From the NCBI RefSeq assembly GCF_001590835.1, contig NZ_LTAQ01000023.1, positions 64,596 to 128,595 on the forward strand: 64,000 nt of DNA, read 5' to 3'. This document shows, one piece after another, positions 44,161-58,692 of the stretch. The stretch is from Bacillus gaemokensis. GTDB lineage: Bacteria; Bacillota; Bacilli; Bacillales; Bacillaceae_G. Every line of letters starts with the position of its first letter. Position 1 is the stretch's first letter. Position numbers and translations under genes: made by a program. Under the pieces are notes generated by a model. That model made no database searches and was not told the origin of the DNA. It saw nothing but the letters and a program-made list of their open reading frames with translations.

Positions 44161-44980
44161 TTTTCTAGTTTTCATATTTTTCTCCTCTTATTCGCTTAGC
44201 ATACATTGAATTCTAATTTAAGAAGTTAAATTCCTTTTGTATACTATACTCAACACACGTTATTGATATAAACCTCGCTCTCAAAAAGTAGCTTACATGT
44301 AAGCTCAACAAAACAAAAGTATGTCCTTTTATAAATTAATTAATTAAAATAATACAATAAATACTAGTTTAAAATGCATAAAAATAGCATAAAAGCATCT
44401 CTTTTTATGCATTTTATTTTTCTATTAAGTTGAGAATTTTGTGTCGCTAGACATCCCCCCTTAGAAGCTTGTTCCCTGTTCATGTATATTTCTTTTGTAT
44501 TATTTATTGAACGTGAATTTGTTATCTATTGTAGTTTTATATTCAAATTTGTATCATGCAAATCTATTTGTTTAAATTGATATTTTTCTAATCAAAAATC
44601 CGATTGGTAATGTTTCCACTTAAATAAGTTTTGCTTTTCCAGACTGGTTACGTCCTTTTTAAATACTAGAATCAGATTACTTGCAAAAAGTTTCTTTTTT
44701 GCACTAAAACCAGCATTATCATGTTAACTTATCTATAGAAAAAATTAAAATAAACTTAATCCACGTTAAAAGGACCTGCTATCAGTTGCAGGTCCTTTTC
44801 AAATAAGAAAGAAATTTGGAGATCACGTATTCATTCAATACAAAAACTTCTAACATAAATCAATAGTTACTACAATTTTTCGTACTAATGTCCTAACTAA
44901 TGTGATTCCACTTAATTCTTTTATAAATAACTTCTCTCATTTATTTCATTGTATACTATCCTTTGAAAGCGCTTGTACAA
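44161..44980. other. AT-rich non-coding region left of the accessory element
   Basis: About 820 bases without a credible gene. Holds a hairpin AAAATGCATAAAAA / TTTTTATGCATTTT (about 44371-44414), a terminator at 44768-44798, and a catabolite-responsive-element-like TGAAAGCGCTTGTA at 44964-44977. Confidence 0.5.
44768..44798. terminator. Terminator hairpin downstream of the left DUF5065 gene
   Basis: AAAAGGACCTGC / GCAGGTCCTTTT, perfect 12 bp, loop TATCAGTT. Confidence 0.8.
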
Positions 44981-45451
44981 TTATTGAGTAATCTTAAATG
45001 GTTGGCCATGTAAAAATGTTGTTTCCCCGTTCTTTAGGGTAAGCTTCATAACCGCAACATAAGTATCTGGGGTATATACAGCGGTAATTGGTGTTTTAAA
45101 TTCAGCGATTCCTGTCCATACGCCAGAATCCTGAATAGTTATATATCTTTGAAGTGAAGTTTCTGCATCCCCCAAGTCATGAATTCTAAAAATTTTCATC
45201 ACAGCACTTTCCCCAGGCTCAAGTCCAAATGACATTCTAAATTCTTCACCTTGTTTCAAATCACCTACACGAGTGATATCTGGTGAGTAGTTTGCATTGT
45301 GATGGACATGTTGCCAAGATTTAAGTCCCCATTCATCATTGAACGGATCAGAGTAAGCCGCAGCAGCTTGTGTAGTTGGTTTAATCATTTCAACAGCTGT
45401 GAAACCGCCAAGTGTTAACGCTCCGATAATTGCTACTTTTCCTAATTTCAT
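44981..45451 (-). CDS. DUF5065 family secreted protein, copy 1
   Basis: 156 residues from the ATG at 45451 (TGGAGGAAAA upstream). Sec signal peptide MKLGKVAIIGALTLGGFTAV... with cleavage near TTQAAA-AY. Shares W-x-x-HHNANY, LKQGEEF, LQRYITIQ and FKTPITAVYTPDTYVAVMKL with the two copies at 57027 and 57567. Secreted beta-rich protein, role unknown. It lies on the left flank, on the opposite strand from the other two. Confidence 0.85.
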   Translation of the reverse strand: MKLGKVAIIGALTLGGFTAVEMIKPTTQAAAAYSDPFNDEWGLKSWQHVHHNANYSPDITRVGDLKQGEEFRMSFGLEPGESAVMKIFRIHDLGDAETSLQRYITIQDSGVWTGIAEFKTPITAVYTPDTYVAVMKLTLKNGETTFLHGQPFKITQ

Positions 45452-45699
45452 AATATGTTTTTCCTCCAATATAAATTTAGTAGTTAGATCAATTCCATAA
45501 TAAGTACAGTTTGCACAATGAAAAAGATTATTTGGTCAATTCAATTATACATGGAAATAATAACAATTAAAGTGTTTTTATTACAAATTTTTATTCTTTA
45601 CGTAAAAAAAGAAATTTATCCCATTTCTTAATTTTTAATAGATTCTTTGTTATGGGGTTGTACCATATCTTGTTGTCGAGCGCTTTTAAACTTTATCCT

Positions 45700-46398
45700 T
45701 TATTTATAAAGAAATTGGAATAAATATACAAATACTCCTGTAGAATCTTCTTTTAATTCTACTTTTTTAATCAAATTTTGTGTTGTAGGACCGAAATTAC
45801 CATTGGCAGTAGCATCATCTAATCCTTCTTCATATTGAATCGCGTACATTAACGCCTTTTGAACATCACGAGAGTAATGACCATCACAAGGCATGTAGAA
45901 GAAACCAGCACGGTTGATATATTTGTTGTTTAACCATTGTTGAATACTTCGAACTTTTGAGCTACCTCCAGTGATTAATACATAAGCGTCCATGGTTAAG
46001 AGTGCTTTAAATAATTTTGGATTTACAGCACCATCTGCTGTACAGCCTAAATCTTTCTGCATAGAAGTAATTGCAGACTGTGTACCTGGCCCATACGTTC
46101 CTGTAATCCCACCTGGTCCATATCCTTTACAATATAAAGCAGCTTGAATAATTTTTACAATATTTGCATTCGTATTAGATGTTGTGCTAATTGGACATTT
46201 TTTTGCAACTGTTTGTAATGTAGTAGGGCCAAAACTAGTAGATGTATTTGTAATCCCAATTTCTAATTGTAATGCTTATGTTAAAGCACCCATGGTTGAC
46301 CAACCTGTTTTCCCATTTTCTTCGATTGCAGTATAACCTGCTTTACCTTTATACGTGCTATTTACCCATTGTTGAGCTTTTAAGACCATTTGATCCAT
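45700..46398 (-). pseudogene. Peptidoglycan-binding protein with in-frame stop and missing C-terminus
   Basis: From the ATG at 46398: MDQMVLKAQQWVNSTYKGKA then GYTAIEENGKTGWSTMGALT, an in-frame TAA at 46276-46278, and ALQLEIGITNTSTSFGPTTLQTV onwards in the same frame to the stop at 45700. The two repeats with FGPTTQNLI are peptidoglycan-binding domains as in B. cereus proteins that carry a C-terminal DUF1906 glycoside-hydrolase-like domain. Here that domain is absent, so the gene is both nonsense-interrupted and 3'-truncated. A start at 46062 could give a 120-residue fragment. A fragment of the same gene sits at 56525 in the opposite orientation. Confidence 0.85.
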
Positions 46399-46564
46399 AA
46401 CTAAGACCTCTTCCCATTATTTTTTAATACACTTAGATATACTTAAGTAAGTTTTGATTCTAAATAATTTTTTTGTCCTTCTGGTAATAAATTTACTGCT
46501 AAATTTGGTATAAAAAGTCCCCTTTTTTCTCAGTATTTTGTCGATACCTTAGCATGTTATTCTT

Positions 46565-46600
46565 CAAAAAAGAGCGATATTTTAATACATCACTCTTTTT
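46565..46600 (-). terminator. Terminator downstream of the arpU-like gene
   Basis: AAAAAGAGTGAT / ATCGCTCTTTTTT on the minus strand with a ~10-base loop and T-run. Confidence 0.78.
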
Positions 46601-46740
46601 GATTTTCTAACTTCAGTTACGTAATAGATTCTTCTATTTTTTGATATTTACTGTAAAAAATTTTTAGGCCTTTACTTTTTAAAAAATTATCTCTTAATCT
46701 TTAAGGATTATCTTAAAAATATAACTGAACATGTTGAAGC

Positions 46741-46778
46741 ATCTAATTGTAAAATTCAATATAAATTTACAATTAGAT
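46741..46778. repeat. 13-bp inverted repeat
   Basis: ATCTAATTGTAAA / TTTACAATTAGAT, perfect, 12-base loop, just after the arpU-like gene. There is no T-run, so it is not a standard terminator. Confidence 0.7.
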
Positions 46779-46797
46779 AAAAATTCCCCTGTTTTTT

Positions 46798-47181
46798 TCA
46801 CATAATTCCTAAAGAAATTGCAATTAACCAAAATGCATTTTTCTTCTTCTTATAATATTTGTCTCTGTTCATTAATAATTTGTCGTAAATATAATCGTCA
46901 TTACATTTTTTGTTACTCAAATACTTCGCAACAATGATATTACGTTGCTCTTCATCTAAAACATACTGCAGTACTTTTTCAATCTGTTCAAACTTCATGC
47001 GGTTAAACCTCTCCAACTCACCAATTCTAGAAAATAAAATAACCCCTTCTTTTTTTTGTTCAGCCGCATTTTCAAAATATATCTTTAACGCACGATATTC
47101 TTTTAAAATATTAATTACTTCCTTTTGAACTTTCTTTTCTGTTTCCTTATCAATTGTTGGTAATAAAGATAATTGTTTCAA
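46798..47181 (-). CDS. ArpU family phage late transcription regulator
   Basis: 127 residues. LSLLPTIDKETEKKVQKEVINILKEYR at the start, a region-4-like middle (DEEQRNIIVAKYLSNKKCNDDYIYDKLLMNRDKYYKKKKNAFWLIAISLGI) and length all fit ArpU proteins, which control phage late genes or muramidase export. It lies at the downstream end of the prophage remnant, beyond the lysis genes. No structural genes follow. Confidence 0.78.
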   Translation of the reverse strand: MKQLSLLPTIDKETEKKVQKEVINILKEYRALKIYFENAAEQKKEGVILFSRIGELERFNRMKFEQIEKVLQYVLDEEQRNIIVAKYLSNKKCNDDYIYDKLLMNRDKYYKKKKNAFWLIAISLGIM

Positions 47182-47270
47182 AAAGAATTCCCCCTTGTAT
47201 TGGATAGAAAAAGATTTAAAAAATGAAGAACTGACTAAAAAATCTCAAACACCTATATCAAAATAAACAA

Positions 47271-47295
47271 GAGCAATGTCCATAGGACATTGCTC
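47271..47295 (-). terminator. Terminator of the lysis cassette
   Basis: GAGCAATGTCC / GGACATTGCTC, loop ATA; U-rich on the minus strand. Confidence 0.8.
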
Positions 47296-47303
47296 CTAAA
47301 TAA

Positions 47304-48356
47304 TTATTTAACTTCTATATAAGATGAGCTTGCCGTAATATAAAATGTCATATTTTTGCTATTATGAACTTTATATTGTTTTGAGCCATTTACCATAATT
47401 TCAGCATCTATAATAAAACATTCCCCAGCATTTACAACACCAGCGACATCTTTATCTTCCCAAGAAGGCGAGCTATAGAAGCGTAAATTATCTACCTTAG
47501 AAATAATGCGGTGTCCTACAATTGATGAATCCACATTATTCCTTGTATCAAGCCTAATATAAGATGGATCATATTTTATCCATTGATTATCTCCAAGGTT
47601 TAACCATCCATCTTCTTCACTCCATACAGCATAAGATTCTGGTTTGTTTATCTGACGAATTACCTGATAACTTGTTCCAGGCCCTTTTCGTAAATTAACA
47701 TTAAATCCTTCTACATATACAACATCATGAATAGAAGACACATTTATTTCTAATGATTCAATAGAATAAAATTTATCACTAGAATAATTGTATGCACGAT
47801 TTACATCGGAACGGAATTGAGATTCAGAAACACCATGACTTTGCAAGTAGGATAATGGATCTTCATGTGTTGTACCCCCAAGGTTTCTACGGACATCATC
47901 ATGTGTCCATAATCCTTTTTCTACAGATATTCCCTTATCATGTAAAATTTTTGCAAGTAGCTTCACATATTTATCATAGGATCGCTTGAATTTATCATAA
48001 TCAGCAGTTTCACAAAGCTCTACGTGTACAAAGCGGCTATTTGCATTTGGACCTGCACCATATGCAATGTAATTTTTATCTGCAATTTGAATTGTTTCAT
48101 TCCAATCTACTGCATAATGTACAAAAGCTGAACGCCATGTACGAGTTTCATATTTTTGAATATTAATAGCTGGCGCTTCCAGTGTTGCAGTACTATGTGC
48201 AACTACTCCTTCATATGCGCCTACGCCATTTCGATAAGGAATTTTCGGTAAGTTCTCTATAATAAGATCTCTATCAGCAAATGCACCTGTAGAAAAACTC
48301 ACTAAGAATATAAATGTCATAAATACAACTGTAAATAGATATAATACTTTTTTCAT
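47304..48356 (-). CDS. N-acetylmuramoyl-L-alanine amidase (endolysin) with SH3 domains
   Basis: 350 residues. A Sec signal peptide (1-27, cleaved after AFA) is followed by an amidase_2 domain (about 33-180): VVAHST with His54, WTHDDV with His152 and HEDP with Asp166 as likely zinc ligands. Two SH3-like wall-binding domains lie at about 213-268 and 280-350. It cuts the muramoyl-alanine bond. It starts 3 bases after the holin stop, so holin and amidase form a lysis cassette. A signal peptide on a phage endolysin is less usual and suggests host-Sec export. Confidence 0.87.
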   Translation of the reverse strand: MKKVLYLFTVVFMTFIFLVSFSTGAFADRDLIIENLPKIPYRNGVGAYEGVVAHSTATLEAPAINIQKYETRTWRSAFVHYAVDWNETIQIADKNYIAYGAGPNANSRFVHVELCETADYDKFKRSYDKYVKLLAKILHDKGISVEKGLWTHDDVRRNLGGTTHEDPLSYLQSHGVSESQFRSDVNRAYNYSSDKFYSIESLEINVSSIHDVVYVEGFNVNLRKGPGTSYQVIRQINKPESYAVWSEEDGWLNLGDNQWIKYDPSYIRLDTRNNVDSSIVGHRIISKVDNLRFYSSPSWEDKDVAGVVNAGECFIIDAEIMVNGSKQYKVHNSKNMTFYITASSSYIEVK

Positions 48357-48359
48357 AAA

Positions 48360-48620
48360 TTATCTATCCCCTTTCGTACCCAAAATTTGTTTGATTTCAG
48401 ATACATCTTTAGATAGAGCACCAAAAGCTTCAGCTTGTTTAGTAATAACAACTTGATTTTCTGTGATTGTCTGCTGATATTTATCTTCCCGTTCTTTATT
48501 CTCTTGACGAGTTGATTCTAATAATTCTTTACTCTCTTTCCTTGTTGAAAATAGCAGCCAAACAAATAAGGCGCCAAAAGCACCTTGTGATAACACTGTA
48601 TTAAAAACTTGCTCTTCCAT
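48360..48620 (-). CDS. BhlA/UviB family holin-like protein
   Basis: 86 residues from the ATG at 48620 (AAAGGAGA 8 bases upstream). MEEQVFNTVLSQGAFGALFVWLL then FSTRKESKELLESTRQENKEREDKYQ is the BhlA/UviB pattern: one membrane segment and a charged coil. It is directly upstream of the amidase and probably opens the membrane at lysis. Confidence 0.88.
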   Translation of the reverse strand: MEEQVFNTVLSQGAFGALFVWLLFSTRKESKELLESTRQENKEREDKYQQTITENQVVITKQAEAFGALSKDVSEIKQILGTKGDR

Positions 48621-48642
48621 TATCTTCATCTCCTTTTCAATA

Positions 48643-48676
48643 ATAAAAATAGAAGCATTCATATGCTTCTATTTTT
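48643..48676 (-). promoter_or_regulatory. Terminator-like hairpin in the holin leader
   Basis: On the minus strand AAAAATAGAAGCAT / ATGCTTCTATTTTT, 14 bp with a 4-base loop and T-rich end, lies immediately before the holin RBS. It would stop transcription arriving from upstream unless relieved. Confidence 0.65.
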
Positions 48677-49195
48677 AAAAGTGTAATTTTGTTAGATTTT
48701 TAAAGTACATGTCTCTAATTATTTGTACTTTTCATAAGAATATTTTCTAATTAAATTTCAAGTAATTTGATCTGCTTTTTTCTTCAGTTAGTACTTTTAA
48801 CAAATAATTGCTTTAAACTATATAAATCTAGATTCTTTATTCCGAAAAATACAACAACTACTTTTACCTACTAATAGTATACCAACAATAAATCAACTGC
48901 ATTGTGTTATAAATGTGGCAGGGGTGTGGCATCATTCTATCTTACAACCCTTTCTTCTAATATTTTCAGGAGAAATAGATTAACTGATTTCTTTCTTAAA
49001 CTTCTTCTTACAATCCCAAATTAACTTCTATATTCACTCATGTTTTTTTGAACATTCACGCAATATCATTAGTCTTTTCAATATACTTCTTCACTTCTAG
49101 TCAATTAATAGAGAATTTTTTTCTCCCTCTAATATGCTATACTCACTATCTTATATTCTCTTTATTTGAGATAAGCCATCATTATAAATAGAAAT
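48677..49195. other. Non-coding gap upstream of the lysis cassette
   Basis: About 520 AT-rich bases where late structural genes would be expected in an intact phage. No coding frame above the background was found. A GTGTGGCA-containing motif occurs at about 48919-48938 (GGCAGGGGTGTGGCAT). Confidence 0.45.
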
Positions 49196-49220
49196 GAAAA
49201 AGAGGAAGCAATCTGCTTCC
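49196..49220 (-). terminator. Terminator of the 49230 gene
   Basis: GGGGAAGCA / TGCTTCCTCTTTTTC on the minus strand. Confidence 0.82.
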
Positions 49221-49229
49221 CCTCCTTAC

Positions 49230-49565
49230 TTATCGGTAAATCTTAAAGCTATCTGTTTTATTGTATTTAGCTGCTCCACCAGCAGATAATTTTCCGTATA
49301 CACGATAGTCACCCGGAAAATTATCTGTGATGTTGAATGATCTTGTTACATTATTTGCAAAGCTACCTAATAAAGTATCAGTTGTAGACCATTCTCCGTT
49401 AACAAGACGTTGTAAGTAAATTGTATAGCTCCATGTGTAACCCGGTGCATTGTTCACTTGTGTGAAATCTACTGTTGTAGCTCCAGAACTGTAATAACTC
49501 GCATCCGTCTAACCGCTTACCTGTGAAGTATAACCATTATAACCACCATGAATATAACATGCCAG
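49230..49565 (-). pseudogene. Beta-rich tandem paralogue, start lost and stop gained
   Basis: Aligned with the intact copy at 49588, the frame begins CTG GCA TGT TAT ATT at 49565 after a conserved GAGGAGGAAA RBS, so the ATG start has become CTG. At 49509-49511 a TAG replaces the TGG of the conserved VSGWTDA. The rest reads normally: NNVTRSFNITDNFPGDYRVYG and DSFKIYR. A GTG at 49457 could restart 75 residues. Two independent lesions suggest decay. Confidence 0.82.
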
Positions 49566-49587
49566 TTTGTTTCCTCCTCAAAGATTT

Positions 49588-49908
49588 TTAGCGGTAAACA
49601 TTAAAAGCATCTGTATAGTTTGTGCTACCGCCATATACACCTTTAACACGATATAGACCAGGTAAATTATCCGTAATATTGAATGATCTTGTTACATTGT
49701 TTTTAAAGCTACCAGATGCTGTGTCAGTAGTATTCCATGTACCATTTGCATTACGCTGTAAATAAATTGTATAATATACTGTCGCACCCGGAACATTGTT
49801 CACTTGAGTAAAATCTACTGACGTAGCACCAGAACCATAAGAATTTGCATCTGTCCAACCACTTACTGTAGATGTACTTCCAGATGTGTTATAAACATAA
49901 CTTGCCAT
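49588..49908 (-). CDS. Beta-rich protein of unknown function
   Basis: 106 residues, no signal peptide. Rich in Thr, Ser, Asn, Gly and Tyr; VSGWTDANSYGSGATSVDFTQVNNVPGATVYYTIYLQRN and RSFNITDNLPGLYRVKGVYGG suggest a single immunoglobulin-like or jelly-roll beta-sandwich. RBS GAGGAGG. A decayed second copy follows directly. I do not recognise the family. Its position before the lysis cassette and its secreted-type composition suggest a structural or released product. Confidence 0.72.
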   Translation of the reverse strand: MASYVYNTSGSTSTVSGWTDANSYGSGATSVDFTQVNNVPGATVYYTIYLQRNANGTWNTTDTASGSFKNNVTRSFNITDNLPGLYRVKGVYGGSTNYTDAFNVYR

Positions 49909-50460
49909 GTTATTTCCTCCTCAAATTTTGTTTGTTTTATCTTTTGTTTTTAGAAGGTGTTGTATTGTCCCTCTAGTAATCATAGTATCGTTAATTCCGC
50001 TATAAAAGCTCCTCAAAAAAATCTTCTTTTTATCAGAATTTTATTATTCTATACTTTTCTCGGCTATTCATAAAACCATATATTGATTCATAAAAATAAT
50101 AGGAGTATTTCATCTTGTGTTTACTTCTATTTGATAATAAAAAAAACCGCTACTACTTAAGTAACAGTTCACATATTATATAGGATTGAAATTATTTTAT
50201 TAAAATTGCTTACCTTTCCTTACTAACTACTTTAAGTAAACCAAGTACTGAAATTATCGTATCTAATTAGCACCTGAAAAATTTTCCTATCTCGATCTAT
50301 TTAGCCAAAATCCTAAAGAATTCTCTCGCTTGTAAATGTGCAGAACCAAGTCCAATGAAAGCCGGAGATGAATTTCAGTTTGGTGTAACCAAAAGGTTTT
50401 ATTATACTGTATTTGTACAGATTGCTCTTTGAAAACTAACAATAAATTTATAGCACTGAC
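49909..50460. other. Non-coding region between beta-rich gene and sigma-like regulator
   Basis: About 550 AT-rich bases. A weak hairpin with a T-run at about 50142-50168 (minus strand) may end the early operon. On the plus strand at about 50330-50432 a short frame reads EPSPMKAGDEFQFGV, faintly like the GxxF motif of DUF5065; too short to call. Confidence 0.45.
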
Positions 50461-50916
50461 TCACTTATGTGTCATTGAAAGAGCTTGATCATCCCACCGC
50501 TTCATGTTACTGCTCACTCTTCTAATATGATCATAGCTATAATTTAACAATTCAGCTATTTGTTTTAAATTCATTCCTTTTACATCTCGATAATACATAA
50601 TACGCTTTTCTAAATCAGTCATTTTCTCCATCACCAATCTACCTTGATCCATTACCGTTTGTTTTTCCTTTACTAGCTCAGTTAGTACATGCATTTTATC
50701 AGCAATTTTATTATTTCTAATTAGTATTTCATCTAAACCTAATGGTACTTTCCCACCTAATACACGTTCTTTCTCATAATTAACTACACCATTAAATTTA
50801 GGTGCGGTCATGTTCATATTTTTTATCAGAAACTTATGTTCTATCTCTAAATCTTGGATTTGAATCTTCAACATCTCAATTTCTTGCTCTAAATCCTGCA
50901 TAAAAGATACTTGCAT
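50461..50916 (-). CDS. Phage sigma-70 region-4-like regulator
   Basis: 151 residues. The N-terminal two thirds is coiled coil. The C-terminus DLEKRIMYYRDVKGMNLKQIAELLNYSYDHIRRVSSNMKR is a sigma region-4-type helix-turn-helix, as in DUF1492/RinA/ArpU-like late-gene regulators of Gram-positive phages. Last gene of the early cluster. Its natural targets, the packaging genes, are missing. Confidence 0.75.
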   Translation of the reverse strand: MQVSFMQDLEQEIEMLKIQIQDLEIEHKFLIKNMNMTAPKFNGVVNYEKERVLGGKVPLGLDEILIRNNKIADKMHVLTELVKEKQTVMDQGRLVMEKMTDLEKRIMYYRDVKGMNLKQIAELLNYSYDHIRRVSSNMKRWDDQALSMTHK

Positions 50917-50973
50917 CTTACAGCCTCCTACTTGTATATATTCGTTTTATCTATTCATATTATTTCATTCTTT

Positions 50974-51144
50974 TTAATTTGTTTTATGCGCTTCATTCTC
51001 TCTTGATACATCATCAAATCGATCTATTTTTGTCATTATCAATTTTTCTAATTGTTTTTCACTAAGTTCCCATAATTGATAGTTATTAAATTTGTATACT
51101 CCGTTCTTAATTAAATACATAATTTTCTGATCTTTATTTACCAT
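50974..51144 (-). CDS. FbpA-like small protein
   Basis: 56 residues; AGGAGG is 5 bases before the ATG. The pattern IMYLIKNGVYKFNNYQLWELSEKQLEKL is that of the Fur-regulated basic protein FbpA family (small proteins, YLIxxGxYK...QLxELxxxELE). No Fur box was seen in front of it. Being inside the prophage suggests a phage-borne relative. Confidence 0.65.
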   Translation of the reverse strand: MVNKDQKIMYLIKNGVYKFNNYQLWELSEKQLEKLIMTKIDRFDDVSRENEAHKTN

Positions 51145-51286
51145 TTATCCTCCTAAGATTAAATTGTTATAACCCAATTTATTTATAAGGATATTAAGAT
51201 TATAAATATAATTCTTTTGCTACTTTCCCCGTGAATTACACTACCTATTATCAAGATTTTGTATTCCTTCTAACATACACACTTAT

Positions 51287-51502
51287 TTATAAGTTAGATA
51301 CATCCATACCACGTTGTATCATATATTGAATTAAATATTGATTCATTCTTTTTCTAAATCTTGATTGATAATAGTAGTCGAGCTTACTAACATCCTCTAA
51401 AAAAGTTAGTACCTTTCGTTCAAATACAAGATATTCAATTAATAGCCATGCACTTACTATTCCATCTCTCTTTGCTTCTGTATAATAGTCTAATATTGTC
51501 AT
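51287..51502 (-). CDS. Small phage-type protein
   Basis: 71 residues from the ATG at 51502 (AAAGGAATG upstream), beginning 5 bases before the helicase stop, so overlapping it. Helical, aromatic-rich (YYTEAKRDGIVSAWLLIEYL, YYYQSRFRKRMNQYLIQYMIQRGM). Function unknown. Confidence 0.65.
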   Translation of the reverse strand: MTILDYYTEAKRDGIVSAWLLIEYLVFERKVLTFLEDVSKLDYYYQSRFRKRMNQYLIQYMIQRGMDVSNL

Positions 51503-51506
51503 AACA

Positions 51507-52814
51507 TCACATTCCTTTATCAAAATATAAATTTGTTTTTTTAACGAACTGAAATGGCAATGTCGCTACAAATCCATTACGGTTTTTTGCTATAATTAAT
51601 TCAACATCATGGAATTCTTGTTCTTCTTGTTGCTCTCTATTGAAATATGCCGGACGATGAGGAAAAATAATTAGGTCAGCAATCTCCTCGATACTTCCAG
51701 ATTCACGAATATCTGCCATTGTAGGTGCCTTGTCTTGCTTTCCCTCAATACTACGATTTAATTGCGCTACAAGTATAATTGGTACACTGTACTCTCTTTG
51801 TATTTCCTTTAACTGTTTCATAATGTATGTGAATTTGAGATGATTATTTTGAAACGATTCCTCTACATCGATATGACCTAGATGATCTATTGCAAAAAGA
51901 TGCTTTTTACCAGGATTTTCCTTTACAATTTTACGAATTACCGTCCGAATTTGATTGATATTCTTTTCTGGACGAACGTTGATAGAAAGCTCTGCTAACT
52001 TACCACATGCTTTATGGTATTTCTCCCAGTATTGTTGCTTTCCATAAAAAAACTTATTCGGATTGTTCATTGTCGCAACAGGAATTTTTCCTTCTGCAGC
52101 AATCCATCTATCAATAATCTTATTTTCATCCATTTCACAAGAGAAAAATGTACCCATATAGTCCTTACTTTGATGTGCTCCACGCCGCATAGTTTCCAAA
52201 ACAAATGCTGTTTTTCCTACTGATGGACGTGCTGCCACAATAATTAAATCTGATGGTTGCCAACCATCTAACCCTTTATCAAGAGTGTTGAATCCAGTAG
52301 GCGTTCCACTTATTCCATTTTCCGGCATTTGACTATGCATCAGAATTCGCTTCTTTAATTTTTCCTGAAACGAAGGCTGTGATTTAATAGTTGTGACCTG
52401 AACATTATTAATTTTAGATATAAGTGTATTAAGCTGCTTAAAACTATGTGTAAATTTTGATTTATCTTTAAACTCCTCAACTGTATGGAGTGCTTCCTCA
52501 ATTGCAACAAACTCTATCATTCTTTCTTCTGTATATTTAAAATTATAATTAAACACTCCTAATTCGTACAAATTACTTAATGTATTTATCCCACCAAACA
52601 TAGCCATCTTTTCTTTTCCAACTTGAGAGAGCGAGACCATATCAACAGGTTTTTCATCACATCGAAGTTCTTTCATTATCTTAAATAAATTTTTGTTATA
52701 AATATTTAAATAATGCTTTTGTTTTAATCTTGTTTCATCTATTAAACCATTGTCATGAATCATCATCCCTAGGCTACAACACTCATTTTCATAATGTACT
52801 TGATACTTGTCCAT
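51507..52814 (-). CDS. DnaB-like replicative DNA helicase (phage)
   Basis: 435 residues from the ATG at 52814 (GAGGTG upstream; the longer reading uses a GTG inside the RBS). N-terminal DnaB domain, then the RecA-type ATPase: Walker A ARPSVGKTA (Gly200-Lys201-Thr202), Walker B-like FAIDHLGHI, and SVPIILVAQLNRSIEGK (the DnaB H3 motif). Replicates the prophage. It follows the replication HTH protein by 10 bases. Confidence 0.9.
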   Translation of the reverse strand: MDKYQVHYENECCSLGMMIHDNGLIDETRLKQKHYLNIYNKNLFKIMKELRCDEKPVDMVSLSQVGKEKMAMFGGINTLSNLYELGVFNYNFKYTEERMIEFVAIEEALHTVEEFKDKSKFTHSFKQLNTLISKINNVQVTTIKSQPSFQEKLKKRILMHSQMPENGISGTPTGFNTLDKGLDGWQPSDLIIVAARPSVGKTAFVLETMRRGAHQSKDYMGTFFSCEMDENKIIDRWIAAEGKIPVATMNNPNKFFYGKQQYWEKYHKACGKLAELSINVRPEKNINQIRTVIRKIVKENPGKKHLFAIDHLGHIDVEESFQNNHLKFTYIMKQLKEIQREYSVPIILVAQLNRSIEGKQDKAPTMADIRESGSIEEIADLIIFPHRPAYFNREQQEEQEFHDVELIIAKNRNGFVATLPFQFVKKTNLYFDKGM

Positions 52815-52824
52815 TCGATACACC

Positions 52825-53565
52825 TCAGTCTAATAAGTTATCTATAGAAAATTTGTCTGTTTGGTGCAAAACTGTTTGTGTTTTTGGTTTTATTTGATCA
52901 GCATACTCCAGATAACATTCATTGTTGAAGAAAGTAGTAGCATGTTTTATAAACCTTGTTTCTATCTCATTTCCTTTAATATATTCAGCATATCTTTGTG
53001 CCCCTAAACTTATCATTTCAATAGAATGTTTTTTAATAGCCAATTTAAATGATTTATAACCTAGTTTTTTATCAATCTTTTTAGGATATAGCCTCCATAA
53101 TTGTTCAAATTCTTCAGAGTAATCCGAGTTTTCGCGTTGAATATTTTTTGTTAACTTAGTTTTGTTAAAATTAGTATTGTTTGTGTTCCCTTCGGATACT
53201 ACCTCTGGTTTCTCTAAGACACTCCCCTGGTCTCTTTCCAATATCATATCTTGTTTTCTTGAGATACCAGGTGTTGGTAACAGGTGATACAGGTTAGAAA
53301 GATTGTCGCCTTTATCATCTTTTCTTGTTGTTTTTGCAATATATTTTTTCTCTACCAAAATCTTGATACACTCAATAATCTTTTTTTTTCCACATCCAAC
53401 CTTTTTAGCAAGTGTATTAAGTGATGGAAAAGCTGATTTTGTTTCTTTATTTGCATACCTAGCGATTACAGCATAGGTTTTAAACGCGTAAACATCTAAG
53501 TCACCATTATCTATAACTTCATTTTCTATCATAAAAAATCCGCCTCGTTTATCAATAAAGTTCAT
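52825..53565 (-). CDS. HTH_36-type phage replication protein
   Basis: 246 residues from the ATG at 53565 (GGAGG 4 bases upstream). N-terminal winged HTH: AFKTYAVIARYANKETKSAFPSLNTLAKKVGCGKKKIIECIKILVEKKYI. A poorly conserved linker follows, then a C-terminal domain (SEEFEQLWRLYPKKIDKKLGYKSFKLAIKK) found in DnaD/replisome-organiser proteins. It sits directly before dnaB, the classic initiator-helicase pair. Confidence 0.82.
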   Translation of the reverse strand: MNFIDKRGGFFMIENEVIDNGDLDVYAFKTYAVIARYANKETKSAFPSLNTLAKKVGCGKKKIIECIKILVEKKYIAKTTRKDDKGDNLSNLYHLLPTPGISRKQDMILERDQGSVLEKPEVVSEGNTNNTNFNKTKLTKNIQRENSDYSEEFEQLWRLYPKKIDKKLGYKSFKLAIKKHSIEMISLGAQRYAEYIKGNEIETRFIKHATTFFNNECYLEYADQIKPKTQTVLHQTDKFSIDNLLD

Positions 53566-53697
53566 AGATCCTCCTTCTCCACCCAACGCTCATAAAGCGT
53601 GTAAAGATTCATTCCATTACAAAATATTTATTGTGTTAGTACTATATATTATTTGATACAGTTCGCTTTACATCCCTTGCAAATCAGTTTGTATATT

Positions 53698-53880
53698 TTA
53701 AAAGGGAACTCGGTCCTCTTCTTCCTTTTGGCTTAATTCATATATTTCTTCTAATACTTGCAAACCATGTTCATATGCAAGTATCATCGCCGTTGAAAAT
53801 AAATCATGATTTTGTTTATGTTTTTCAATTAATCTTAAAAAAATTCTTCTTTCTAAATGGAACTTTTCATCTAGACGCAT
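53698..53880 (-). CDS. Small phage protein
   Basis: 60 residues from the ATG at 53880 (CAGGTG upstream), overlapping the stop of the previous gene. Helical, acidic C-terminus. No motif. Part of the early operon. Confidence 0.6.
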   Translation of the reverse strand: MRLDEKFHLERRIFLRLIEKHKQNHDLFSTAMILAYEHGLQVLEEIYELSQKEEEDRVPF

Positions 53881-53881
53881 T

Positions 53882-54085
53882 TTATTCACCTGCCACTTTC
53901 TTTATAGAATAATTTTCAACATAGTGTTTAATACATTCTGTCTCACAATGAAGATAATCTCCATCAAAGTCATAATAATTCTCACCAAAATAAATTTCAC
54001 CTCGACACCCTTCACAATATTCTAGAAAGTCATTCCTACTAGAATCGAAACACTGATTGTAAGTCATTGGATTTTCAATCACCAT
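53882..54085 (-). CDS. Small zinc-ribbon-like phage protein
   Basis: 67 residues from the ATG at 54085 (TAGGAG upstream). Two cysteine pairs, CEGC and CETEC (about 21-24 and 45-49), flank GEIYFGENYYDFDGDYLH, a typical zinc ribbon of small Bacillus phage early proteins. Opens MVIENPM like skin-element YqaI relatives. Confidence 0.68.
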   Translation of the reverse strand: MVIENPMTYNQCFDSSRNDFLEYCEGCRGEIYFGENYYDFDGDYLHCETECIKHYVENYSIKKVAGE

Positions 54086-54173
54086 CAATTTCTCCTATCT
54101 TTTGAGATAAAATAACTAGGAAACTAATAATTGTTTTATTTTATATATGAGGTTTAATAATTGAGGCTTTCTA

Positions 54174-54437
54174 CTACAATTTATTCTTTTGTTTCGTAGG
54201 AGGATTAATTTTTATATTTTTCCTAACCCCTATTAAGCAATCATATTCTGTTTTTCTTCTAAACAACTCCAATAACTGTTTACGAGCTGCAGTACCTTCG
54301 GCTAGCCATTTCATGTATTCTTCTCGGTCTTTCATATGTAAAGCTACTATTTGCTTTTTTATTGTATGATTCAAAAGATGAATTAAACTATTAGCTTCTT
54401 TCTCATGATGTGGTAAGATCCTATTTCTAAAGGCCAT
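54174..54437 (-). CDS. Small basic phage protein
   Basis: 87 residues; GAGGAG lies 9 bases before the ATG. Helical, basic end NIKINPPTKQKNKL. Function unknown; in the early operon. Confidence 0.6.
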   Translation of the reverse strand: MAFRNRILPHHEKEANSLIHLLNHTIKKQIVALHMKDREEYMKWLAEGTAARKQLLELFRRKTEYDCLIGVRKNIKINPPTKQKNKL

Positions 54438-54513
54438 ACATGAATTCTCCTCTATTTGTTTTTACATATGTTCACTGATAATTGAAAAGTAATCCTATGT
54501 GAATTTCTTTTAT

Positions 54514-55236
54514 TTATGCTGTTGCATTCTTCTTATTTAAAAGTTTATCTGCCACTCTTACTGCATCTTCTAACTGATTCGTAATCGCTAAGTATTGAGG
54601 AGCTGTTATTCGTTTCAGTGCATGCTTTTTTTTATAATTATTCATTTTCATTTTTAAATTTGTTCTATATGCTCTGTTATAGACAGATCTAAATACTCTC
54701 CATGCTTTTTGGAAGCTAATACCTTCATTCAAAGCCAAGAGCTGAATCATTTTATTTAAACGTTGCTGTAGACAACTCTCTGTATTAAGAGTATCAAGAC
54801 TATTAATACGATGTTCTACAGTTCTTACTTGTTTCTCTAATTGTTGAATTATAAGTAAAATCTCTACCGGTATTTTTTCACAATTCCAATTACTCTCTTT
54901 TACATGTTTAAATTCTTTTAAAAATTTAATCTTCACTTTTAAAGCTTCTGCATTTATATCTCCCATTGTTACAAATGCAAATGCACTTTCTGTGAGTGTA
55001 AACTTAGGGTATTCTATTCCTTTAATGGTATAACTCGACTTAATAAAATTAGCTTTTGAAAAATCACTTTCCCCAGCTTCGTTTAATTTTTGAATCTGAT
55101 TTACAATAGTATGTATTACAGATTTATGTTCTTCCTTCATCATGTAAGCAATTATTAAACTATCAGTAACAAGCTTATTTCCTTCCATAAATACCAAATT
55201 GCCAACTATATCTTCTCTCTTTTTTTCAACACCCAT
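54514..55236 (-). CDS. Rha family phage regulatory protein with ORF6C-type C-terminus
   Basis: 240 residues from the ATG at 55236 (GGAGGGG upstream). The Rha domain (about 10-110) has VTDSLIIAYMMKEEHKSVIHTIV and FTLTESAFAFVTMG, then IKFLKEF. The C-terminal half resembles ORF6C domains. Rha proteins act in lysis-lysogeny control and antirepression in temperate phages. Confidence 0.85.
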   Translation of the reverse strand: MGVEKKREDIVGNLVFMEGNKLVTDSLIIAYMMKEEHKSVIHTIVNQIQKLNEAGESDFSKANFIKSSYTIKGIEYPKFTLTESAFAFVTMGDINAEALKVKIKFLKEFKHVKESNWNCEKIPVEILLIIQQLEKQVRTVEHRINSLDTLNTESCLQQRLNKMIQLLALNEGISFQKAWRVFRSVYNRAYRTNLKMKMNNYKKKHALKRITAPQYLAITNQLEDAVRVADKLLNKKNATA

Positions 55237-55280
55237 ATATATCCCCTCCACTTTTATAAATCACAGGTTTACTTAAACTA

Positions 55281-55463
55281 TTAAAAAAAAAGTTCTTTTG
55301 GATCTTCTTCAAGAGCAATTGCAATTTTTAATGCCAGCTCTATTTTTAAATTTCTTTTATTATTTTCTATATACCAATAGTGCATTTTCGTTATCCCAAC
55401 CTTATTAGCAACCTCTTCATAAGTCCATCCTTTTTCTATTCTTTTTCTCTTTAATTTTTGCAA
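55281..55463 (-). CDS. Cro-like XRE family regulator
   Basis: 60 residues if translation starts at the TTG at 55463, which has GAAGGGG 8 bases upstream; an ATG at 55481 has none. HTH: LKRKRIEKGWTYEEVANKVGITKMHYWYIENNKRNLKIELALKIAIALEEDP. It opens the early operon under a strong promoter (55495-55523) with an embedded palindrome. Confidence 0.85.
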   Translation of the reverse strand: MQKLKRKRIEKGWTYEEVANKVGITKMHYWYIENNKRNLKIELALKIAIALEEDPKELFF

Positions 55464-55494
55464 GGCGATTACCCCTTCCATTATCTATATTCTT

Positions 55495-55523
55495 ATTATA
55501 AATAAACTACAAGTTTATTTCAA
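55495..55523 (-). promoter_or_regulatory. Early-operon promoter with palindromic operator
   Basis: Minus strand: TTGAAA, 17 bases, TATAAT, close to the sigma-A consensus. Between them lies the dyad AAATAAACT-TGT-AGTTTATTT (55500-55520). It shares TAAAC-N5-GTTTA with the repressor promoter at 58663. Confidence 0.85.
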
Positions 55524-55650
55524 GTGTTTTTTAGAAAAAACACAACCAAAATTATCTTCAACAAAATATGTATTTTCCTGGTGATTTCAATATTTAATTA
55601 GAATGATATATAATAAAAAATATTTATTAAACATATACATTAAAAGAAAA

Positions 55651-55667
55651 AGCCCCTCACTGGGCTA
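55651..55667 (-). terminator. Terminator of the 42-residue gene
   Basis: AGCCC / GGGCT around AGTGAG on the minus strand, then TTTTTC. It overlaps the 3' end of the gene. Confidence 0.7.
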
Positions 55668-55785
55668 TCTTTTTTTCTATATATGTTTTGGAAAAACATG
55701 CTTTTAGAATTTCCTCAGTGTTAATTTTATTTCCCTCTTTTAACCATAGCTTTACTACTTCTTTAGCTAATTCTTGTTTATTCAT
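55657..55785 (-). CDS. Very small helical protein
   Basis: 42 residues from the ATG at 55785, RBS GGGGGAATTGGG. MNKQELAKEVVKLWLKEGNK and a helical tail. Function unknown. A single gene with its own terminator between the early operon and the secreted peptide gene. Confidence 0.55.
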   Translation of the reverse strand: MNKQELAKEVVKLWLKEGNKINTEEILKACFSKTYIEKKIAQ

Positions 55786-55887
55786 CCCAATTCCCCCATA
55801 TTCAACATGTAATTTTGTGATTTTTTCACAATGTTTCACTTTTTTGTTAAATATATAAAAAGCGAATCTCTCTAAAACGTAGGAATG

Positions 55888-55917
55888 ACATCGTTCTAAT
55901 CAAAACGATGTCATTCA
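55888..55917. terminator. 13-bp perfect hairpin
   Basis: GAATGACATCGTT / AACGATGTCATTC with a short loop (CTAATCA), directly downstream of the small secreted peptide gene. It may end that transcript. Confidence 0.6.
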
Positions 55918-55947
55918 ACACTTCAATAATTTATAATATTTTTCGTA

Positions 55948-56085
55948 TTACCAACCACCACCTGGATCAGTCATTTGAACTAAATGACTAACCTCATATT
56001 GTTTTGAATAATCTGTACTTTCCTCTTCTAGTACACATATGGATACTCCTAATAAAACAACTAGGAATATTAAAATTTTTTTCAA
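55948..56085 (-). CDS. Small secreted peptide, possible signalling pre-peptide
   Basis: 45 residues with a TTG start placed 5 bases after GAGGTGG. MKKILIFLVVLLGVSICVLE is a Sec signal peptide or anchor. The remainder EESTDYSKQYEVSHLV ends QMTDPGGGW. Size and layout resemble Phr and AimP precursors, which are processed from a short C-terminus. The tail does not match known AimP peptides (which end RGA-like). An AimR-like receptor is 3.5 kb away on the same strand; no receptor is adjacent. Confidence 0.55.
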   Translation of the reverse strand: MKKILIFLVVLLGVSICVLEEESTDYSKQYEVSHLVQMTDPGGGW

Positions 56086-56524
56086 TTTTTCCACCTCATT
56101 TTAAATAATTACTTCCTTTTCTTTTATAACTAAAATATTTAACCATATTCATTTTTCTTTCATTAAATTTTACGAATTTAAATTTGTTATAAGAAACAGA
56201 GTACTCACCTATTATATTTATACTCCTCATATTCTAAAGAATAAAAGATTTATAGTTTTACCTACCCAATTTCTTCTCCACTATAAATCTCTATATGAAT
56301 ATTTTACCACAAAATAGAACCTGTGTTCTAGTTTTAATTTAAAATATCACATAAATTTATTGTTATTTAACATACGGAAAAATGAAATTTATTCAGGAAT
56401 AAGAAAACACTACGGAATATAGCAGTAAACTAATTACAAGAAGAACAACAAAATTTCTTCTCATCATTTAGATCATAGCTCAGGAAAATTGGGCTACATT
56501 CACATAAAAGAAAGAGGTATTTTA
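56086..56524. other. AT-rich non-coding region
   Basis: About 440 bases, no coding frame seen. Runs of A and T predominate. It precedes the duplicated peptidoglycan-binding fragment. Confidence 0.45.
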
Positions 56525-56650
56525 ATGGTCTTAAAAGCCCAACAATGGGTAAATAGCACGTATAAAGATAGAGCGGGCTATAAAAAATCGAAGAAAATCC
56601 AAATCCTCACTGGGGAGACTTTGAGCCAAATGCATATATTCTTTATGTAA
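56525..56650 (+). pseudogene. Duplicate 5' fragment of the peptidoglycan-binding gene
   Basis: The ATG at 56525 (GAGGT upstream) opens MVLKAQQWVNSTYKDRAGYK, matching MVLKAQQWVNSTYKGKAGY at 46398-46340. After AGYKK one base is missing; the restored frame continues IEENPNPHWGDFEPNAYILY then VI and stop. So the 5' end of the gene is joined, after IEEN, to an unrelated or C-terminal tail. It points the opposite way to the left copy. Confidence 0.78.
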
Positions 56651-57026
56651 TTTAATTAATACGATCTATTATCATCAATAGCATAAAAAAGAAGTATCTA
56701 TCTAGATACTTCTTTTGATTCTAGTACAAATATATAATAAAAAATGAAAATTCTCTTAAAAAGTGGATGAAGCAGGTTTTGGTGCAAGAACTTCAGAACA
56801 ATTATAAGGCACCTTTGAACTACCTATTTTTCTTTTACCCAATTTCATTTATAAAACACTATAATATGCAAATTTCTTTTAATTGTCACTATTTTCATAC
56901 TTATTCACCTTATTTACATTTTAAAAACACGATATAATAATACACAGTATTCTTACCAAATGCTATTTTTGTTTTAATATTATTTTTCACCTAATTAATC
57001 TTCATAATAACAGGAGGTTTTTGAAC
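56651..57026. other. Leader region of the right DUF5065 pair
   Basis: About 375 AT-rich bases with the terminator at 56688-56717 and the promoter of the DUF5065 pair. No additional gene. Confidence 0.45.
56688..56717. terminator. Terminator palindrome
   Basis: AAAAGAAGTATCTA / TAGATACTTCTTTT, perfect, downstream of the peptidoglycan-binding fragment. Confidence 0.82.
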
Positions 57027-57503
57027 ATGGAAAAGCTAAAATCCGTGGCACTTATCGGAGCATTAACGATCGGTAGTTTTACAACAATCGGGGTATTCTC
57101 AACACCAAACCAAGCATTAGCTGCAACATCAAGCACTGTACAGAAAGCATCTCCTGTAGTAGACGACTGGAGATGGCAATCCTTTTTCCTACTTCACCAC
57201 AATGCAGATTACCGAGCTGAGTTAGCTGTAGGAACACTAAGACACGGCGATACATTTGATGTTACATCTGAAGTTGGTGGCATCGACAACGGTATTATCA
57301 AAATATACCGTATAAATTATATAGGCGATGGTCTAGATGAGTTACAGCGATTCAAAACAATCCAAGGTGGAGAAGCAGGTCACCACTTCTATAGCAGATT
57401 CACTACACCTATCACAACTGTTTATACACCTGGAGATTATGTAGCTGTACTAAAAGTAGGCGATCATTACTATTACGGTGGTAAGTTCCAAATTACGAAA
57501 TAA
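57027..57503 (+). CDS. DUF5065 family secreted protein, copy 2
   Basis: 158 residues from the ATG at 57027 (AGGAGG upstream). Signal peptide cleaved near QALA-A. Mature part: DDWRWQSFFLLHHNADYRAELAVGTLRHGDTFDV, KIYRINYIGDG, LQRFKTIQ, FTTPITTVYTPGDYVAVLKVGDHYYYGGKFQI. Close to copy 3, 64 bases downstream, with which it probably forms an operon. Function unknown. Confidence 0.86.
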   Translation: MEKLKSVALIGALTIGSFTTIGVFSTPNQALAATSSTVQKASPVVDDWRWQSFFLLHHNADYRAELAVGTLRHGDTFDVTSEVGGIDNGIIKIYRINYIGDGLDELQRFKTIQGGEAGHHFYSRFTTPITTVYTPGDYVAVLKVGDHYYYGGKFQITK

Positions 57504-57566
57504 ACAGTATTCCTATCAATTCCTACACTATATAAATGTCAAAATTAACTACAAGGAGAATTTTCT

Positions 57567-58019
57567 ATGAAAAAACTAGGAACTATAGCTTTAGTTGGAG
57601 CATTAACACTTGGCGGTTTTACAGCAGCCGGAGTATTTACAGAACCTCAACATGCATCAGCTGCTAAAGGGGCATATGATGACTGGAGATGGCAAGAGTT
57701 TTTCTTAATTCACCATAACGCAGACTACCGACCAGAGTTAGCGGTAGGTCACCTTAGACATGGTGATACTTTTGACATTACTACTCAAGTTAATGGGACT
57801 GATAAAGGTATAATTAAACTATATCGAATCGATTATAGTGACAGCGATTATGGCGACCTACAACGCTACAAAACAATTCAACCATCAGATACAGGCGAGC
57901 GCTATTACAGTAGATTTACTACACCTATTACTAGTGCCTACGAGCCAGGCAGTTACGTAGCTGTATTAAAAGTAGGTGAAGACTACTATTACGGTGGTTC
58001 ATTCAAAATTTCAAGATAA
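57567..58019 (+). CDS. DUF5065 family secreted protein, copy 3
   Basis: 150 residues, RBS AAGGAGA. Signal peptide cleaved near HASA-A. Nearly the same core as copy 2 (DDWRWQEFFLIHHNADYRPELAVGHLRHGDTFDIT). It arose by tandem duplication. The two right-hand copies are closer to each other than to copy 1. Ends before a terminator. Confidence 0.86.
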   Translation: MKKLGTIALVGALTLGGFTAAGVFTEPQHASAAKGAYDDWRWQEFFLIHHNADYRPELAVGHLRHGDTFDITTQVNGTDKGIIKLYRIDYSDSDYGDLQRYKTIQPSDTGERYYSRFTTPITSAYEPGSYVAVLKVGEDYYYGGSFKISR

Positions 58020-58044
58020 TTGAAACTGACTCTCATGACATAGA

Positions 58045-58079
58045 AATGCCCCCTACATTCACTTGTGGGGGGTTTTTTT
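58045..58079 (+). terminator. Terminator of the DUF5065 operon
   Basis: GCCCCCTAC / GTGGGGGG type stem followed by seven T. Confidence 0.85.
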
Positions 58080-58650
58080 AACTCAAGCATAACCATAAGT
58101 GTTATAAAAAGTAAGAGTCCCCATTATATAGGTTTCTTTGTAACCACAGAAATTTTTTTAGCGATATTGATGAGATTACAAAAATAATTTCTGGAGAAGG
58201 TCAATGATTAAGGTAATACGAATGTAAACTCATATACTAAAGTTTATATTTATTTTAAAACATTACTTGTTTACTCTTAAATTAATTTATTTCATTGCTT
58301 TCTATGATTAACTTGCAATTACTACAACTTTGTATTCCCAAAAATAAAGAAGCTTCTTTTTTTGGCAATGATGAAGGAAAATCAATGTTGTTTGGATATG
58401 ATTCTCTCCCCTATTAGGAAAGTCGCACAATATAGTTTGAACGTTTTTACACATGATGCTCTTGTAAATAAAAAATTCAAAGTATGATTTCCAGTCCTCG
58501 TTTCCATGCAAATCCTCGTTTATACATTGCTACATTAATTTATATTTGGTTAATCATGTTATCTTTTGACTACACTTTATTAATTCCTGCTTTATTAATT
58601 TTCTCTCAAATCTAAGTAAATCTGAGATTTATAATTTTTTTTGTAAAAAT
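58080..58650. other. Non-coding gap between DUF5065 operon and repressor
   Basis: About 570 AT-rich bases. A 67-codon minus-strand frame (58308-58511) has a GAGGA before it but no recognisable content, so I do not call it. Confidence 0.45.
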
Positions 58651-58662
58651 AAGATACATCAC

Positions 58663-58692
58663 TTGTGGTAAACACATTGTTTACTTTATAAT
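58663..58692 (+). promoter_or_regulatory. Repressor promoter with palindromic operator
   Basis: TTGTGG, 18 bases, TATAAT. The dyad GTAAACA-CAT-TGTTTAC (58668-58684) lies between the boxes. It has the TAAAC-N5-GTTTA core seen at the early promoter. Confidence 0.8.

What the first reader, a model, noticed from the sequence alone, without database searches (positions are those of the whole stretch)
44981..58019. Prophage core framed by mirror-image DUF5065 / peptidoglycan-binding flanks
Left flank (minus strand): DUF5065 copy 1 then a peptidoglycan-binding gene. Right flank (plus strand): a 5' fragment of that same peptidoglycan-binding gene then DUF5065 copies 2 and 3. The order is the same read outward from the phage core and the orientation is inverted. 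This fits an inverted duplication, or phage insertion between cargo gene sets, and suggests that DUF5065 and the wall-binding protein travel together as a unit.
Basis: partly seen in the sequence, partly recalled or inferred. Interest (0 to 1): 0.75.

Follow-up and report, generated by a model that had tools for sequence, protein, structure and literature searches.

The report
Decayed prophage island with DUF5065 genes
A stretch of chromosome where decayed virus DNA, jumping-gene scraps and two sets of small secreted-protein genes have piled up between two ordinary genes; the mirror-image look comes from two worn-out copies of one gene facing opposite ways, and not, as far as the evidence goes, from a duplicated block.

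Summary
The layout is real but misread. Three intact DUF5065 genes are present. The left peptidoglycan-binding (PGB) gene is broken and lacks its 3' end; the right one is not just a 5' fragment but keeps both ends of the gene, with about 2.1 kb lost between. Left and right share about 190 nt in inverted orientation, only around the PGB start; spacers and DUF5065 upstream regions show nothing above chance, and the DUF5065 copies are far more diverged (synonymous sites near saturation) than the PGB relics (88%). This argues against one inverted block duplication. The right set lies inside phage DNA: repressor and AimR genes continue to 60.7 kb, and the set parts aimR from an aimP-like gene that follows aimR directly in 36 of 37 related prophage loci. 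The whole 18.35 kb lies between yqcI and lysE, neighbours in the four closest genomes held: an accretion island of arbitrium-type prophage remnant(s), IS relics and DUF5065/PGB segments. No DUF5065 or PGB was found in 78 + 80 related prophage loci. Recurrent DUF5065-PGB pairing in B. cereus-group chromosomes could not be tested: I met none in the collections. Mostly ordinary; the split arbitrium switch is the one unusual detail.

The parts
43975..62327 (.). whole insert (18.35 kb) between lysE and yqcI, which are adjacent in the closest genomes
   Evidence: synteny in L001 and L002; adjacency in four of four genomes with lysE at 74-81%
43342..43974 (-). lysE-type transporter, left border gene
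   Evidence: Pfam LysE; 74-81% to four genomes
62328..63056 (-). YqcI/YcgG family gene, right border gene
   Evidence: Pfam PF08892; 73-78% to four genomes
44589..44713 (-). IS6-family relic (end and start of transposase)
   Evidence: 84.5% over 84 nt to an annotated Priestia IS6 copy, 18 aa of transposase start at 83%
44981..45469 (-). DUF5065 copy 1 (D1), intact
   Evidence: Pfam, phrog_10569
45700..46398 (-). left PGB-DUF1906-type pseudogene: in-frame stop, 3' part missing
46315..46510 (-). left arm of the inverted repeat (PGB start and upstream)
46798..47181 (-). ArpU-type late regulator
   Evidence: TIGR01637 43.4 bits vs cut-off 43.1; phrog_248
47304..48356 (-). endolysin (amidase)
   Evidence: Pfam Amidase_2, phrog_2338
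48360..48662 (-). BhlA-type holin
   Evidence: Pfam PF10960
50461..50916 (-). sigma-like phage regulator
   Evidence: Pfam Sigma70_r4; phrog_10157
51507..52823 (-). DnaB-like helicase
   Evidence: Pfam; 78-79% to ten viral-contig loci
52825..53586 (-). DnaD-like replication protein
   Evidence: Pfam HTH_36 and weak DnaD_N, phrog_270
54514..55251 (-). Rha/antirepressor
   Evidence: Pfam Phage_pRha, phrog_373
55281..55481 (-). Cro-like HTH (HTH66)
   Evidence: Pfam HTH_3; matched in 29 of 78 prophage loci
55442..55558 (.). HTH66-side copy of the switch intergenic region (overlaps the start of HTH66)
55657..55839 (-). small ORF next to aimP (o60)
   Evidence: matched in 21 of 78 prophage loci
55948..56094 (-). 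aimP-like gene, 48-aa propeptide ending DPGGGW
56283..56383 (.). region that in relatives lies upstream of aimR (with a GAAC-N4-GTTC site)
56412..56680 (+). right PGB relic: upstream region, first ~76 nt and last codons of the gene, ~2.13 kb of the middle missing
56758..56803 (+). weak IS6-family end
   Evidence: 76% over 46 nt, E 1.4e-4
57021..57503 (+). DUF5065 copy 2 (D2), intact
   Evidence: Pfam
57567..58019 (+). DUF5065 copy 3 (D3), intact, followed by a terminator-like hairpin at 58048-58073
   Evidence: Pfam; (1 found, 0.9 expected)
58559..58733 (.). HTH116-side copy of the switch intergenic region (in some relatives the match starts only at 58613)
58734..59084 (+). CI-like HTH repressor (HTH116)
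   Evidence: Pfam HTH_3; 68 viral-contig loci
59547..60710 (-). aimR, arbitrium receptor
   Evidence: NF038310 401.8 bits vs cut-off 70; Pfam AimR 1.3e-53
61661..62234 (+). IS3-type transposase relic (type recalled)
   Evidence: Pfam rve_3 on 62010-62234

Best explanation
The region is an accretion island between yqcI and lysE, built of one or two arbitrium-type temperate-phage remnants, IS6- and IS3-type relics, and two PGB/DUF5065 segments that were not copied from each other as a block. The mirror symmetry comes from two old, separately decaying paralogues of a PGB-DUF1906 gene lying divergently on either side of a phage remnant, each with DUF5065 genes downstream. Shown by sequence: the borders, the gene identities, how the PGB copies are broken, the extent of the inverted homology, the unequal divergence, and the distance between aimR and aimP. 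Inferred: that two phage modules (A with aimP, B with aimR) met here, that IS6-type elements helped rearrange the segment, and that the DUF5065 proteins (signal-peptide-like N-terminus, purifying selection between D2 and D3) are secreted proteins kept by selection while the PGB copies decay.
For: Empty site: yqcI and lysE adjacent with the same outer genes in E. panaciterrae and E. antri, and adjacent in four of four genomes with lysE at 74-81%. Phage identity and extent. No integrase, terminase, capsid or tail family among the listed PHROG matches of 20 ORFs, out of 26 of at least 60 aa that one search lists inside the insert. PGB relics. Inverted homology confined to about 190 nt. Divergence: D1-D3 pS 0.67 (dS 1.72), D1-D2 pS 0.80 (saturated), D2-D3 dS 1.34 with dN/dS 0.20, against 88% identity of the PGB pieces. 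The right PGB piece is as close to the E. panaciterrae gene (89%) as to the left copy (88%). IS6-family traces beside both sets (the right one weak). Parts of the switch region in two places. An aimP-like ORF directly after aimR in 36 of 37 relatives, 3.45 kb away here.
Against: The two PGB relics share an upstream region not recognisable in the E. panaciterrae gene, so they belong to one subfamily and some duplication did happen. Two PGB-DUF5065 adjacencies in one island look more than accidental. The two copies of the switch region overlap by only about 60 nt at moderate identity, so two modules rather than one scrambled module is not certain. Saturated sites only bound the DUF5065 age, and the PGB comparison rests on 76 coding nt. 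PHROG families for DUF5065 and PGB exist, so phages or prophages elsewhere do carry them. In four of the nine lysE loci (L006-L009, lysE 44-48%) no yqcI was found nearby, so the neighbourhood is not universal.
Confidence: 0.62

Rival explanations
1. A prophage (module A, about 46.8-56.4 kb) integrated between two already existing, divergent PGB-DUF5065 sets.
For: The PGB upstream regions lie near the phage segment on both sides (arms end at 46510 and about 56412; recognisable phage sequence from 46798 and to about 56383).
Against: Only 9-mers as direct repeats at these borders and none of 10 nt or more; no integrase among the listed PHROG matches of the 20 ORFs scanned; more phage sequence beyond the right set.
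Confidence: 0.2
2. One prophage was rearranged by IS6-family elements: an inversion or deletions between IS6 copies separated D1 from D2-D3, brought the PGB/DUF5065 segment into the phage switch and split aimR from aimP.
For: IS6-family traces near both sets in opposite orientation; intramolecular transposition of IS6 elements gives deletions or inversions (PMC7986276, passages); in E. panaciterrae a PGB homologue lies between two IS6-type transposase frames.
Against: The IS6 traces are fragments and the right one is weak (E 1.4e-4); target duplications were not analysed. Part of the switch region seems to exist twice, which a simple inversion does not give.
Confidence: 0.13
3. Inverted duplication of a PGB-DUF5065 block.
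For: Same outward order and inverted orientation on both sides; about 190 nt of inverted homology.
Against: No homology above chance in spacers or DUF5065 upstream regions; DUF5065 copies far more diverged than the PGB relics; an IS6-type trace lies between PGB and DUF5065 on the right only.
Confidence: 0.05

Closest known systems
Arbitrium-type prophages of Bacillus (AimR, AimP-like, small ORF, CI- and Cro-like genes, as described for phage B83 in PMC6669507, passages seen)
   Same: AimR over the curated cut-off, an AimP-like propeptide with the DPG motif, CI- and Cro-like repressors, related replication genes
   Different: aimR and the aimP-like gene are 3.45 kb apart with the PGB relic, an IS6-type trace, two DUF5065 genes and the repressor between them; no structural gene or integrase seen in the ORFs scanned
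DUF5065 family (PF16723; solved structure 4GUC, 'Protein BA_2500')
   Same: all three copies well over the cut-off; a profile of the three matches 4GUC at 7.8e-47
   Different: nothing seen that sets them apart; function unknown; no paper of the searched library holds DUF5065, BA_2500 with Bacillus, or 4GUC
PGB-DUF1906 (glycoside-hydrolase-like) proteins
   Same: 87% identity of the C-terminal piece to a 756-aa frame of E. panaciterrae; some plasmid homologues are annotated glycoside hydrolase domain or DUF1906
   Different: both copies here are broken
IS6-family pseudo-compound transposon (PMC7986276, passages seen)
   Same: IS6-type traces near PGB, and a PGB gene between two IS6-type transposase frames in E. 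panaciterrae
   Different: here only fragments, in opposite rather than direct orientation

Membership tests
Inverted duplication of a PGB-DUF5065 unit | homology through the whole unit including spacers | tested here: not met
   spacer 19 of 60 shuffles as good; DUF5065 upstream 20 of 40 (D2) and 40 of 40 (D3)
Inverted duplication of a PGB-DUF5065 unit | equal divergence of all parts | tested here: not met
   DUF5065 synonymous sites near or at saturation, PGB pieces 88% over 76 nt
Arbitrium system | AimR-family receptor | tested here: met
   NF038310 401.8 bits vs 70; Pfam AimR
Arbitrium system | AimP propeptide with hydrophobic N-terminus and short C-terminal signal | tested here: met
   48 aa ending DPGGGW, same ending as four relatives; by sequence only, processing not tested
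Arbitrium system | receptor and propeptide genes directly adjacent (criterion in PMC10075063, passages seen) | tested here: not met
   3.45 kb apart; adjacent in 36 of 37 relatives
Arbitrium system | peptide binding switches lysis-lysogeny | not testable with these tools
   needs an experiment
Intact prophage | integrase and structural genes | tested here: not met
   none among the listed PHROG matches of 20 of 26 ORFs; one weak match of the HTH repressor to a 'DNA transposition protein' family (4.4e-4), read as its HTH
DUF5065 | score over the Pfam cut-off | tested here: met
IS6 pseudo-compound transposon | two IS6 copies in direct orientation around the cargo | tested here: not met
   fragments in opposite orientation
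DUF5065-PGB as a recurrent pair | adjacency in several genomes | tested here: inconclusive
   no pair met outside the window, but no B. cereus-group chromosome was met, and the controls rang in 0 of 14 genomes

The most novel reading that the evidence does not exclude
A split arbitrium switch: two prophage remnants contribute one half each (aimP from module A, aimR from module B), matched well enough for the DPGGGW peptide to act on this AimR, with two secreted DUF5065 proteins sitting between the halves and perhaps under their control. The decayed phage would then work as a peptide-sensing regulator of secreted host proteins.
Probability: 0.06. Interest if true: 0.6.

Novelty: new member of a known kind. 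Interest (0 to 1): 0.3.

Why it matters
It shows how a striking mirror arrangement can arise from paralogue relics around a prophage without a block duplication, and it yields one testable oddity: an arbitrium receptor parted from its signal gene by host-like cargo. It also records the yqcI-lysE interval as a place where phage and IS debris has gathered beside intact DUF5065 genes, a family with a solved structure and no known role.

Tried and rejected
Block inverted duplication: rejected (the shuffles are first-order Markov samples). Regular cargo of this phage type: DUF5065 and PGB absent from 78 and 80 prophage loci; the 80 are the best of 171, flanks reach at most 10 kb, and some loci of the two sets share a contig (L041 and L065, L039 and L181, L061 and L135, L064 and L123). 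Yet PHROG families exist for both proteins. att sites of phage A: only 9-mers. An 82-nt, 72% direct repeat near both outer ends of the insert was considered as attL/attR and left open; relatives L042 and L043 have weak matches to it. Rfam: no match over gathering scores in 42000-64000. PlcR-type boxes in front of DUF5065: none listed there; two perfect matches lie upstream of aimR (10 matches with up to one mismatch, 5.7 expected). Scans of viral contigs with sig151, A1, PGB_C, D2 and AimR confirmed no relative, as did genome contigs with A1. These scans need exact peptide words: the AimR scan found nothing although AimR relatives at up to 46% were already in hand, so such zeros are weak. Promoter-like sites around D2-D3 are fewer than in shuffles (8 vs 14.0). 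No fold search of DUF5065 was made, since structure prediction was never accepted.
Full report
What was claimed. A phage core framed by mirror-image DUF5065/peptidoglycan-binding (PGB) flanks, explained by an inverted duplication or by phage insertion between cargo sets that travel as a unit.

What is there. Pfam confirms three DUF5065 genes: D1 at 44981-45469 on the minus strand, D2 and D3 at 57021-57503 and 57567-58019 on the plus strand. A self comparison gives, outside DUF5065 itself, two neighbouring inverted matches between the flanks: 46315-46390 / 56524-56598 (88% over 76 nt, E 3e-19) and 46466-46505 / 56416-56455 (85% over 40 nt, E 4.5e-5). Upstream of the PGB start 56 nt are 77% identical and none of 60 shuffles is as good; the PGB-DUF5065 spacers (19 of 60 shuffles as good) and the DUF5065 upstream regions (20 of 40 for D2, 40 of 40 for D3) show nothing. 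The shared inverted part is about 190 nt.

The PGB relics. The left copy has an in-frame stop and lacks its 3' part. A homologue in Ectobacillus panaciterrae (756-aa frame, 87% identical over the C-terminal piece) shows that about 1.57 kb is missing. The right copy keeps the start and, from 56596, the last codons and 3' flank of the gene (69% over 94 nt, E 1e-8); about 2.13 kb between them is gone, and the two matches overlap by three bases at the junction. It is a remnant with both ends, not a 5' fragment. The right piece is as close to the E. panaciterrae gene (89%) as to the left copy (88%).

No block duplication. D1 differs from D2 and D3 at saturated or nearly saturated synonymous sites (pS 0.80 and 0.67); D2-D3 has dS 1.34 and dN/dS 0.20, as under purifying selection. 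DUF5065 copies that look much older than the PGB pieces beside them are unlikely to have been copied together with them. Limits: saturation, and only 76 coding nt of PGB.

The borders. In E. panaciterrae (L001) two genes that I call DUF2564 and csp (labels recalled) precede yqcI and lysE, and the genes that follow lysE are those left of lysE here; E. antri (L002) agrees, except that csp was not found. yqcI and lysE are neighbours in four of four genomes whose lysE is 74-81% identical, two of them the named ones. Farther off it varies: of the seven other loci, L005 has the pair in the same orientation, L003 and L004 have yqcI reversed, and L006-L009 show no yqcI nearby. So 43975-62327, 18.35 kb, reads as an insert.

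The phage. From 46.8 to 55.5 kb on the minus strand: ArpU-type regulator, endolysin, holin, two small paralogous ORFs, sigma-like regulator, DnaB, DnaD-like protein, small ORFs, Rha-type antirepressor, Cro-like HTH. Of 26 ORFs of at least 60 aa that one search lists inside the insert, 20 were scanned against PHROGs; no listed match is an integrase, terminase, capsid or tail family (the list for one protein was cut at 25 of 36). DnaB is 78-79% identical to ten viral-contig loci. AimR at 59547-60710 passes its curated cut-off (401.8 vs 70 bits), and a CI-like repressor lies at 58734-59084. The repressor query brought 68 loci. In relatives the order, in window orientation and where the genes are found, is Cro-like(-), CI-like(+), o60(-), aimP(-), aimR(-), with 163-166 nt between the first two in 19 of the 21 printed loci that show both (L041 and L065 are one contig). 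Here the order is Cro-like, o60, aimP-like, then PGB relic, IS6-type trace, D2, D3, then CI-like, a 77-aa ORF, aimR. The right set thus lies inside phage DNA.

The split switch. The aimP-like gene at 55948-56094 encodes 48 aa ending DPGGGW, the ending found in four relatives (L040, L049, L064, L072) whose AimR is 42-43% identical to this one. In 36 of 37 relatives a short ORF with a hydrophobic start follows aimR directly (which picked ORFs by that very feature; L104 and L105 end differently; in L106 the AimR match was cut short and the ORF picked is not AimP-like). Here 3.45 kb separate them. Parts of the Cro-CI intergenic region occur twice (55442-55558 and 58559-58733, the second from 58613 only in some relatives), and a region that lies upstream of aimR in relatives occurs near the aimP-like gene (56283-56383). 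I read this as two partly deleted modules; the overlap is about 60 nt, so one scrambled module is not excluded.

Mobile relics. IS6-family traces lie at 44589-44713(-) and, weakly (76% over 46 nt, E 1.4e-4), at 56758-56803(+), in opposite orientation. In E. panaciterrae two PGB-DUF1906-type genes lie with two IS6-type transposase frames on one 7.3-kb contig. Intramolecular transposition of IS6 elements yields deletions or inversions (PMC7986276, passages). An IS3-type relic (type recalled) lies at 61661-62234.

Do DUF5065 and PGB travel together? DUF5065: 0 of 50,697 phage records (D3 and D1 queries); 1 of 72,556 plasmid records, a partial copy on a Bacillus arachidis plasmid with no match to the PGB C-piece in the 12.2-kb locus; 0 of 19 genomes of the E. 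panaciterrae family; in 397 genomes of the order two weak matches, 0 over the cut-off. The controls of both family searches rang in 0 of 14 genomes, so these zeros are weak. PGB C-piece: 1 of the 19 genomes, 527 plasmid records, 379 of them Enterococcus, 1 weak phage record. Neither was found in 78 or 80 prophage loci; some loci share contigs and flanks are short. On the other side, PHROG families exist for both.

DUF5065 function. A profile of the three copies matches the solved structure 4GUC, 'Protein BA_2500' (7.8e-47). The library holds no paper with DUF5065, with BA_2500 and Bacillus, or with 4GUC. The signal-peptide-like N-termini suggest secretion (inferred by eye).

Verdict. The layout is real, the block duplication is not supported, the travelling unit is untested where it matters, and the locus is best read as an accretion island around arbitrium-phage debris.

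Noticed in passing
60842-60922: A palindromic pair, TATGCATAATTTCATA and TATGAAATTATGCATA, upstream of aimR; both fit the PlcR-box consensus (recalled) exactly and could be AimR operators.
   Followed up: partly
44040-44170 and 61320-61450: About 82 nt of direct repeat at 72% identity near both outer ends of the insert.
   Followed up: partly
49230-49457 and 49588-49908: Two small paralogous phage ORFs in tandem, 76% identical over 221 nt; both match phrog_8287, one of them weakly.
   Followed up: no
59257-59490: A 77-aa ORF sits where aimP and o60 are expected; one relative (L061) has it elsewhere at 47%.
   Followed up: partly
L047: Two PGB-DUF1906-type genes (755- and 756-aa frames) with two IS6-type transposase frames on one E. 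panaciterrae contig.
   Followed up: partly
L048 840-3084: A Priestia megaterium plasmid carries annotated YqcI/YcgG and LysE genes side by side next to an IS6-family transposase.
   Followed up: no
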